Shown: one piece after another, positions 11,827-19,451 of the stretch
How positions within the stretch are numbered: position 1 is the stretch's first letter
Layout of the letters: each line of letters begins with the position of its first letter
Source of the DNA: Desulfolithobacter dissulfuricans
GTDB taxonomy: Bacteria > Desulfobacterota > Desulfobulbia > Desulfobulbales > Desulfobulbaceae
Assembly (NCBI RefSeq): GCF_025998535.1
Contig: NZ_AP024233.1
Span: 1-64,000 of the forward strand
Reading direction: 5' to 3'
DNA: 64,000 bases
Translations under genes and position numbers: made by a program
The notes under the pieces: generated by a model
Told to the model about the DNA's origin: nothing
The model's database searches: none
The model's input: the letters and a program-made list of their open reading frames with translations, nothing else

Positions 11827-12018
11827 ATTAAATTATCTGATTACCATCAATCTTCAGCATTGAAGTCGGTGTCGGTCTCCCGTGTTTCACGGGACGCCAT
11901 AAACCCGTCCCTGGGGGCTTGACTGTGGCCATCCAGGCCACAGACACCCGTGCAACAAGTGAGGCCGACACCTTCATCCAATCGGTGGCTGAATTTCAGT
12001 GGTAATCACATTAAATTA
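11827..12018. mobile_element. MITE-like structured element, copy 1, with 9-bp target duplication
   Basis: The 174-bp element (11836-12009) has ends TCTGATTACCA and TGGTAATCAC, so the terminal inverted repeat is TGATTACCA. It is flanked by the perfect 9-bp direct repeat ATTAAATTA (11827-11835 and 12010-12018). A second, very similar copy is at 19270-19442 with a different flanking 9-mer, which is what transposition would leave. There is no coding frame of note. Internal complementary arms include GGTGTCGGTCTC with GAGGCCGACACC and the hairpin CTGTGGCC-ATCCA-GGCCACAG. It sits 22 bases before the ychF start. Confidence 0.88.
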
Positions 12019-18980: not shown

Positions 18981-19274
18981 ATGCCCGTGAAGACCCTGGC
19001 CGATGGCCGGCTCCTGCTGGCTGTGCGTGTGCAGCCTCGGGCCAGCCGCAACCAGCTGGCCGGCCTGCATGACGGTGCCCTCAAGATCCGTCTGACCACC
19101 CCGCCGGTGGATGGTAAGGCCAACAAGGCCCTGATCGCTTTTCTGGCCAAACTCTTTCACCTCCCCAAGTCCGCCATAACCGTCCAGAGCGGCCACCAGG
19201 CCCGCAGCAAACAGCTCGTCATCGAGGGGATCAGCGAAGAGGACGTCAGGAGAATTGTGCATTGTGAATTCTGA
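18981..19274 (+). CDS. DUF167 / YggU family protein
   Basis: The 97-aa product shows the DUF167 signature: VRVQPRASRNQLAGLHDGALKIRLTTPPVDGKANKALIAFLAKLF. The fold is a small alpha/beta domain of unknown function. GGAAG lies just before ATG 18981. The stop TGA (19272-19274) is supplied by the inserted element: the terminal codons TTC TGA lie at its edge. Removing the element and one 9-bp duplicate would give TCG TGA, so only the last residue changes. Confidence 0.9.
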   Translation: MPVKTLADGRLLLAVRVQPRASRNQLAGLHDGALKIRLTTPPVDGKANKALIAFLAKLFHLPKSAITVQSGHQARSKQLVIEGISEEDVRRIVHCEF

Positions 19275-19451
19275 TTACCATCAATCTTTGGCATTGAAAC
19301 CGGTGTCGACCTCCCTTGTTTCACGGGACGCCATAAACCCGTCCCTGGGGGCTTGACTGTGGCCATCCAGGCCACAGACACCCGTGAAACGGGTGAGGCC
19401 GACACCTTCATCCATCGGTGGCTGAATTTCAGTGGTAATCACATTGTGAAT
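19261..19451. mobile_element. MITE-like structured element, copy 2, with 9-bp target duplication
   Basis: The 173-bp element (19270-19442) has the same ends and internal structure as the copy at 11836-12009. It is flanked by a different perfect 9-bp repeat, ATTGTGAAT (19261-19269 and 19443-19451). The inner long stem pairs CTTGTTTCACGGG with CCCGTGAAACGGG and is better preserved than in copy 1. It lies between yggU and cobJ. Confidence 0.88.

What the first reader, a model, noticed from the sequence alone, without database searches (positions are those of the whole stretch)
11827..12018. MITE-like element flanked by a perfect 9-bp target duplication before ychF
Directly seen: a 174-bp non-coding unit with TGATTACCA inverted ends, flanked by ATTAAATTA on both sides. 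The homologous copy at 19270-19442 has a different 9-mer, so each insertion appears to have made its own duplication. This is evidence of a mobile, non-autonomous family that I do not recognise.
Basis: seen in the sequence. Interest (0 to 1): 0.75.

Follow-up and report, generated by a model that had tools for sequence, protein, structure and literature searches.

The report
IS1595-type MITE carrying a structured cap

Summary
The ninth base is a preferred A beside the target (33 of 42 perfect cases). The 3.6-Mb genome holds 64 core-bearing copies and 11 more places with the ends but no core. The ends TNTGATTACCA...TTCAGCC, the 8-bp duplication and the A-N8-T target match IS1595-family elements, including a 1052-bp one with an open transposase frame (L132). 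No partner with these ends was found in this genome.

Two results go beyond the finding. (1) Nine copies carry a 2026-bp group II intron at one fixed base. Introns without differences sit in MITEs differing at 16 or 6 sites, which points to repeated retrohoming into MITEs already present. (2) The MITE centre is a covarying three-way-junction cap (16 of 22 pairs with double changes), without an Rfam match at gathering score. It recurs in MITEs with three other kinds of ends; a near-match occurs 565 times in Methylotuvimicrobium buryatense. Its complement resembles CsrA sites; that function is untested.

The parts
11828..11835 (.). left 8-bp target duplication TTAAATTA of copy 1 (preceded by a preferred A)
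11836..12010 (+).
11836..11858 (+). left terminal inverted repeat TCTGATTACCATCAATCTTCAGC
   Evidence: same type of end on IS1595-family elements
11986..12010 (-). right terminal inverted repeat TGTGATTACCACTGAAATTCAGCCA
11868..11879 (+). position homologous to the group II intron target (insertion after base 44 of the MITE); copy 1 reads GGTGTCGGTCTC, unoccupied
11882..11958 (+). structured cap (three-way junction with two RTCC-loop hairpins on this strand; GGA loops on the complement)
12011..12018 (.). right 8-bp target duplication TTAAATTA of copy 1
19262..19269 (.). left 8-bp target duplication TTGTGAAT of copy 2
19270..19443 (+). MITE copy 2, 174 bp; its third to fifth bases are the TGA stop codon of the 97-codon ORF 18981-19274
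19316..19392 (+). structured cap of copy 2
19444..19451 (.). right 8-bp target duplication TTGTGAAT of copy 2

Best explanation
The element is a MITE that spread through the action in trans of an IS1595-family transposase. Shown: many copies, non-coding, 8-bp duplications at A-N8-T targets, and ends and target like those of IS1595-family elements that encode a zinc-ribbon plus DDE transposase. Inferred: the transposase that moved it was of that subgroup and is no longer in this genome. After the MITE had dispersed, a group II intron retrohomed repeatedly into a fixed target in its left arm (fixed position and mismatch of histories shown; retrohoming inferred). The centre of the MITE is a conserved structured cap on a long hairpin. 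The same cap occurs in MITEs with unrelated ends in other bacteria (shown), so it is a module with a history, and probably a function, separate from the transposon ends (inferred). Its most likely mode of action is as folded single-stranded nucleic acid recognised by a protein; CsrA/RsmA binding to the complement strand is my leading but untested candidate.
For: Copies: 64 core, 71 right-end and 69 left-end hits, controls 0, in 73 clusters, two of which hold two cores and 11 no core. Duplication and symmetric target. IS1595 link: PF12760 zinc ribbon just inside a TGTGATTACCACTGAATTTCAGCC end in Desulfogranum marinum (broken element). A 1052-bp element (L132) has ends TGTGATTACCACTAATCTTCAGCC / TGTGATTACCAACGAACTTCAGCC, duplication ATTCCATT, and a frame matching PF12762 (9.5e-27) and PF12760 (6.5e-16). 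In 29 distinct transposase-bearing elements with 8/8 duplications, -1 is A in 25, +1 is T in 22, -2 is C in 16 and +2 is G in 18, the same profile as the MITE. Passages of PMC8101967 give 8-bp duplications as usual for IS1595. Intron: RVT_1 and GIIM, RF00029 at gathering score. Of 12 full-length copies, 9 are in the MITE at the same base and 3 elsewhere. L211, L216 and two non-MITE sites share introns with 0 differences although the L211/L216 MITEs differ at 16 sites; L209/L215 have 0 intron and 6 MITE differences (hypergeometric 1e-18 and 2e-7). Cap, 27 chosen rows: 97.0% of cells paired vs 77.5% in shuffles and 31-47% when slid; 117 double changes vs 31.5. Cap, all 70 model matches (66 distinct rows) in the 64 sources: 94.9% vs 77.7%, 252 vs 66.1.
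Against: The only IS1595-family transposase found in the genome (3 identical 984-bp copies, ends TATGGCTCTTAAC) has different outer ends, so mobilisation in trans is inferred. No orthologous empty site was shown. The GCC/GGC pairs of the cap hardly vary and say nothing. I did not test overall correlation of intron and MITE distances; the case for retrohoming rests on the pairs named, and gene conversion could contribute. For CsrA there is sequence resemblance only: no csrA-like start motif in 1.264 Mb (about 35%) of the genome, and no significant orientation of copies between co-directional genes (18 vs 9, p 0.12).
Confidence: 0.88

Rival explanations
1. The MITE was mobilised by the resident IS1595-family element (TATGGCTC ends), not by a lost partner.
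For: Both make 8-bp duplications, and TTCAGC lies at the same distance (positions 18-23) from the outer end in both. One resident copy sits directly at a MITE duplication, so the 8-mer AAAATTTA occurs three times.
Against: Most bases between positions 5 and 17 of the ends differ. Elements in other genomes match the MITE ends far better.
Confidence: 0.15
2. A 9-bp-duplicating family (IS1, IS4 or ISLre2 type, recalled) produced the element, as the reader's 9-mers suggest.
For: Both window copies show a 9-mer.
Against: 9 of 42 copies with a perfect 8-mer lack the ninth match, and the target is symmetric about 8 bp. Transposase-bearing relatives duplicate 8 bp.
Confidence: 0.03
3. The intron-loaded copies arose by transposition of one loaded MITE, not by repeated retrohoming.
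For: All 9 introns are at the same base and orientation, in the left arm only although the right arm carries a like target inverted.
Against: Introns with 0 differences lie in MITEs differing at 16 and 6 sites, and the same intron version is at two non-MITE sites. Gene conversion between introns could mimic part of this.
Confidence: 0.07
4. The cap is only a by-product: a long palindrome needs a loop, and loops were shared by descent among MITEs.
For: In this genome all 20 cap hits in 1.264 Mb fall in MITE copies (coordinates compared by me).
Against: Near-constant loop letters with compensatory changes in the hairpins, across MITEs with different ends and duplications of 8 or 9 bp, in Thermodesulfobacteriota and Gammaproteobacteria.
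Confidence: 0.2

Closest known systems
IS1595 family (zinc-ribbon subgroups)
   Same: 8-bp duplications, ends TNTGATTACC...TTCAGCC, A-N8-T target (family features from passages of PMC8101967)
   Different: The window element has no transposase, is 174-176 bp, and no partner with the same ends was found in its genome
Bacterial MITEs in general
   Same: Short, many copies, inverted repeats, duplications, ends shared with an IS (description in passages of PMC3852290)
   Different: Carries a covarying cap shared with MITEs of other end types; serves as an intron target
Dispersed group II introns
   Same: RT with GIIM domain, RF00029 domain, several near-identical copies
   Different: Here 9 of 12 copies are in a MITE; the other introns I looked at (17 loci) stand behind terminator-like hairpins or behind another intron (judged by eye)
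Thiomargarita dsrA 'MITEtron' (PMC4853749, passages)
   Same: A MITE and a self-splicing intron joined
   Different: There the MITE lies in a group I intron; here a group II intron lies in the MITE and occurs in nine copies of it
CsrA/RsmA binding hairpins, CsrB/RsmZ-type sponges (the latter recalled)
   Same: Complement of hairpin 1 has an ANGGAN hexaloop; many M. buryatense copies read UACANGGAYGUA vs SELEX RUACARGGAUGU (PMC7652899, passages)
   Different: Embedded in a transposable element, on either strand relative to genes without significant bias; binding untested

Membership tests
MITE | Short non-coding repeat with terminal inverted repeats and target duplications in many copies | tested here: met
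MITE of the IS1595 family | Ends shared with elements encoding PF12762 + PF12760 transposase | tested here: met
   best example L132
MITE of the IS1595 family | 8-bp target duplication and same target preference | tested here: met
MITE of the IS1595 family | Autonomous partner with the same ends in the same genome | tested here: not met
   only three copies with TATGGCTC ends (not required for membership, but lowers the claim of current activity)
MITE of the IS1595 family | Moved in trans by that transposase | not testable with these tools
   needs a transposition assay
Group II intron (2026-bp insert) | RT/maturase ORF and catalytic domain | tested here: met
   RVT_1 2.1e-35, GIIM 4.1e-14; RF00029 46.9 bits, cut-off 40; best solved relative GsI-IIC RT 3.5e-60
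Group II intron (2026-bp insert) | Base pairing of EBS1 with the target | tested here: inconclusive
   One GAGGTC, complement of GACCTC, at intron base 210 in the first 600 bases; not verified by structure
Rfam families | Cap matches a curated family | tested here: not met
   window region: best of 3 hits below cut-off, E 0.43; 12 other cap loci: none at gathering score
CsrA/RsmA site | GGA in hexaloop of a short hairpin | tested here: met
   complement of hairpin 1 loop is ANGGA in 63 of 67 loci (loci were found with patterns that contain this loop, so partly by choice); hairpin 2 loop holds TCC in 61 of 67 (not used to find the loci); hairpin 2 is a fitting ANGGAN hexaloop mainly in gammaproteobacterial rows
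CsrA/RsmA site | csrA in the same genome | tested here: inconclusive
   no motif hit in 1.264 Mb of 3.60 Mb
CsrA/RsmA site | RNA of that strand made and bound | not testable with these tools
   needs RNA-seq and binding assay

The most novel reading that the evidence does not exclude
The cap is a portable nucleic-acid module that unrelated MITE families acquired independently in Thermodesulfobacteriota and Gammaproteobacteria, because its transcript (the GGA strand) binds the global regulator CsrA/RsmA. MITEs would then scatter tens to hundreds of Csr decoy sites through genomes (565 pattern matches in M. buryatense), reshaping post-transcriptional control, while group II introns use the same elements as a dispersed safe harbour.
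Probability: 0.22. Interest if true: 0.87.

Novelty: new variant of a known kind. Interest (0 to 1): 0.6.

Why it matters
As a MITE it is an ordinary, well-supported member of a known kind. What it carries is less ordinary. A covarying structure without an Rfam 15 match sits in the middle of MITEs whose ends belong to different transposons, in two phyla. That raises a testable question: do small mobile elements carry a ready-made binding domain for a host protein? The element also gives a natural case of a group II intron spreading through a genome by way of a MITE, with separable histories of host element and intron.

Tried and rejected
A 9-bp duplication: rejected. Plasmid copies of the 174-bp unit: no match at E 1e-5. 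Cap in plasmids or phages: only weak partial hits, E 0.3 or worse. A 25-nt cap pattern in viral contigs: 0. Rfam: nothing at gathering score for the cap.

The 1868-bp relative with the same kind of ends (L224) looked like a possible autonomous partner; it holds an IS110-type transposase and was rejected. Gene interruption as an internal empty site: 7 of 58 copies seemed to lie inside ORFs, but on reading five of them the halves looked like spurious frames or start codons just beyond the element, so I claim no empty site. An orientation bias seen in the first 25 intergenic copies (12 vs 3 in co-directional contexts) faded to 18 vs 9, p 0.12, among 51. csrA: not found by typed motifs; inconclusive. 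My first cap alignment used 27 of 34 non-redundant rows; the 7 left out (L266, L271, L273, L288, L290, L305, L325) include several that pair poorly, and 12 of 67 rows had been dropped before by a filter that asked for a hairpin-2 loop like RTCC and a close core. I therefore repeated the count on all 70 model matches and tallied the loops in all 67; the result stands, somewhat weaker. I found no paper on an intron in a bacterial MITE of this kind, or on the cap; that rests only on searches, mostly listings, in an open-licence library, so I do not claim priority.

Full report
Observation. The window holds two copies of a 174-175 bp non-coding element. Its limits are 11836-12010 and 19270-19443, each flanked by an 8-bp duplication. 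As RNA, copy 1 folds far better than shuffles (-81.2 against a mean of -51.5 kcal/mol, z -6.87). The genome (one 3,596,428-bp contig) has 64 matches to the 25-nt core with up to 3 mismatches, 71 to the right end and 69 to the left end; the reversed-pattern control gave 0 each time. Together these make 73 clusters: 62 contain a core, two of them two cores, and 11 have an end but no core. One of the 11 (2588825, 3 mismatches, left end only) may be chance. BLAST scored only 40 of 102 candidates, so I counted with patterns.

Duplication and target. In 57 copies with paired ends and at least 6 of 8 matching flank bases, 42 have 8/8. Among these 42, the base before the 8-mer is A in 33 and T in 9, and the element always ends in A; a true 9-bp duplication would need A in all. 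The target is symmetric around the 8-mer, roughly C-A-N8-T-G with A/T-rich N8.

Family. The ends recur in relatives on elements with other interiors. An exact end pattern is present in 68 of 249 genomes of the order, the window's own included, with no control hit among the rows shown. In Desulfogranum marinum such an end lies just outside a transposase start matching PF12760; that copy is broken. Searching with this fragment gave 74 of 257 genomes of the order at E 1e-15, own included, and the best 80 of 277 named loci. Of 109 loci scanned for inverted ends plus duplication, 32 gave a pair with 8/8 duplication, nearly all with NNTGATTA-type ends, 10 gave 6-7/8 (some spurious) and 67 gave none, some because the contig ended. 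The scan favours pairs with a duplication, so the ends, not the 8/8, carry the weight. L132 (MAG contig JAHIVT010000116.1) has a 343-codon frame matching PF12762 and PF12760 in a 1052-bp element. The target profile of 29 distinct elements (A at -1 in 25, T at +1 in 22) resembles that of the MITE. In the window genome only a different IS1595-family element was found: three identical 984-bp copies with TATGGCTCTTAAC ends and 8-bp duplications. The MITE is thus an IS1595-type MITE whose own partner appears to be lost.

Copies with cargo. Nine copies are about 2200 bp long. The insert is 2026 bp (2025 in L212, whose RT frame is split), encodes a reverse transcriptase with RVT_1 and GIIM domains, and scores 46.9 bits for RF00029. 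In all nine it starts after MITE base 44, GGTGTCGRCCTC (GGTGTTGACCTC in L217). The genome has 12 full-length copies of this intron: 9 in the MITE and 3 elsewhere, one of them after GGTGTCGGCCTC in an unrelated sequence. Introns of L211, L216, L233 and L235 show no differences, yet the L211 and L216 MITEs differ at 16 sites and the other two sites are not MITEs. L209 and L215 introns show no differences while their MITEs differ at 6 sites (p about 1e-18 and 2e-7 if differences fell evenly). The simplest account is repeated retrohoming into MITEs that were already dispersed. Other loaded pairs differ in both parts (4-24 intron differences with 4-52 MITE differences among L209, L210 and L212-L214), and I did not test the overall correlation. 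All nine are in the left arm although the right arm carries a like target inverted; I have no tested reason. A truncated tenth loaded copy is likely at 789 kb. In 249 genomes of the order, 7 hold a close RT relative (E 1e-120; own included); the two nearest (92% and 75% identical) lie at sites that do not look like the MITE target.

The cap. The inner part of the MITE recurs beyond it. With up to 3 mismatches the 29-nt core is in 12 of 249 genomes of the order, own included; G158 has 78 and G143 16. Of 18 loci from other genomes first looked at, 9 have TNTGATTA-type ends on both sides, but the hairpin arms around the core differ in sequence. With a test for ends plus duplication, 16 of 23 loci of G158, G143, G127, G144 and G145 show such ends. 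Loci of genus g40 have GTAACTATTCAG ends (8-bp duplication in L268; 2 of 4 gave a pair). In L263 and L265 I saw only the hairpin. A looser pattern hit 7 of 48 genomes (48 of the 80 loci): 565 matches in Methylotuvimicrobium buryatense 5G and 14 in a gammaproteobacterial MAG, controls 0. There the ends are CAGCAATTCCCAATTTG with 9-bp duplications (2 of 7 loci: L314, L321) and CAATGCCATTAAGTTAAG with 8-bp duplications (4 of 6: L309, L315, L326, and L324 with 7/8); six loci of G267 and G268 gave no ends. An alignment of 27 chosen sequences gives a three-way junction of 22 pairs, 16 with changes on both sides; 97.0% of cells pair against 77.5% in shuffles (0 of 500 as high) and 31-47% when the partners are slid. 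Because I had filtered rows, I repeated it on all 70 model matches in 64 sources: 94.9% against 77.7% in shuffles (0 of 500) and 26-44% when slid, 252 double changes against 66.1, 16 of 22 pairs. That alignment is fitted to the structure. Rows were found through the core letters, so hairpin-1 loop conservation is partly by choice; the arms and hairpin 2 were not. Rfam has no match at gathering score. In 1.264 Mb of the window genome the model finds 20 caps, all in known copies by my comparison of coordinates. In the 80 transposase loci it finds one (L200, M. buryatense), and in 29 loci of same-ended elements without core none. So the cap is not part of the transposon ends.

What the cap may do. 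On the complement, hairpin 1 has an ANGGA loop in 63 of 67 loci, and hairpin 2 has GGA in its loop in 61 of 67. In many M. buryatense copies hairpin 1 reads UACANGGAYGUA. CsrA SELEX gave RUACARGGAUGU, mostly GGA in hexaloops closed by AC/GU, and RsmE binds ANGGAN loops (PMC7652899, passages). This is a resemblance, not a test. Against it: no csrA motif in the third of the genome I could read, no significant orientation, and hairpin 2 in Desulfobulbales is a poorer fit. DNA-level recognition is equally open.

Context. By rough ORF tiling 51 of 58 placed copies are intergenic. Copy 2 contains the stop codon of the 97-codon ORF 18981-19274. The genome lies in the same family as Desulfogranum (handles G001 and G013 match named contigs; NCBI lineage), but I did not identify the species.

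Noticed in passing
L240-L256 (own genome, e.g. C1:2476386, 2478477, 2480568): 33 further full-length group II intron RTs (38-40% identical to the MITE intron's). Of the 17 loci looked at, most stand behind terminator-like hairpins and four directly behind another intron, about 2090 bp apart (by eye).
   Followed up: partly
own genome C1:2135307-2136474 (L054, L077): A resident IS1595-family element is inserted exactly at a MITE duplication, so AAAATTTA occurs three times; the same 8-mer was a target twice.
   Followed up: partly
own copies: The second base of the two ends differs within a copy in 55 of 57 cases (C/G 30, G/C 17, G/T 4, T/G 2, C/A 2; same letter only in L070 and L075), while several end pairs in relatives are alike.
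   Followed up: partly
L210 and L070: The cap is inverted relative to the ends, as if flipped by recombination between the hairpin arms.
   Followed up: no
L224 (C1:3170838-3172705): A related element of 1868 bp carries an IS110-type transposase gene; L225 looks like a shorter relative of about 404 bp.
   Followed up: partly
L091, L092, L093, L097: Elements of 65-66 bp consist of little more than the two ends, with perfect 8-bp duplications.
   Followed up: no
window 19270-19274: The MITE end TCTGA contains the stop codon of the preceding ORF (18981-19274).
   Followed up: yes
L309, L314, L320, L322 (gammaproteobacterial loci): Hairpin 2 of the cap is enlarged or altered, as if a further hairpin or element had inserted in its loop.
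   Followed up: no
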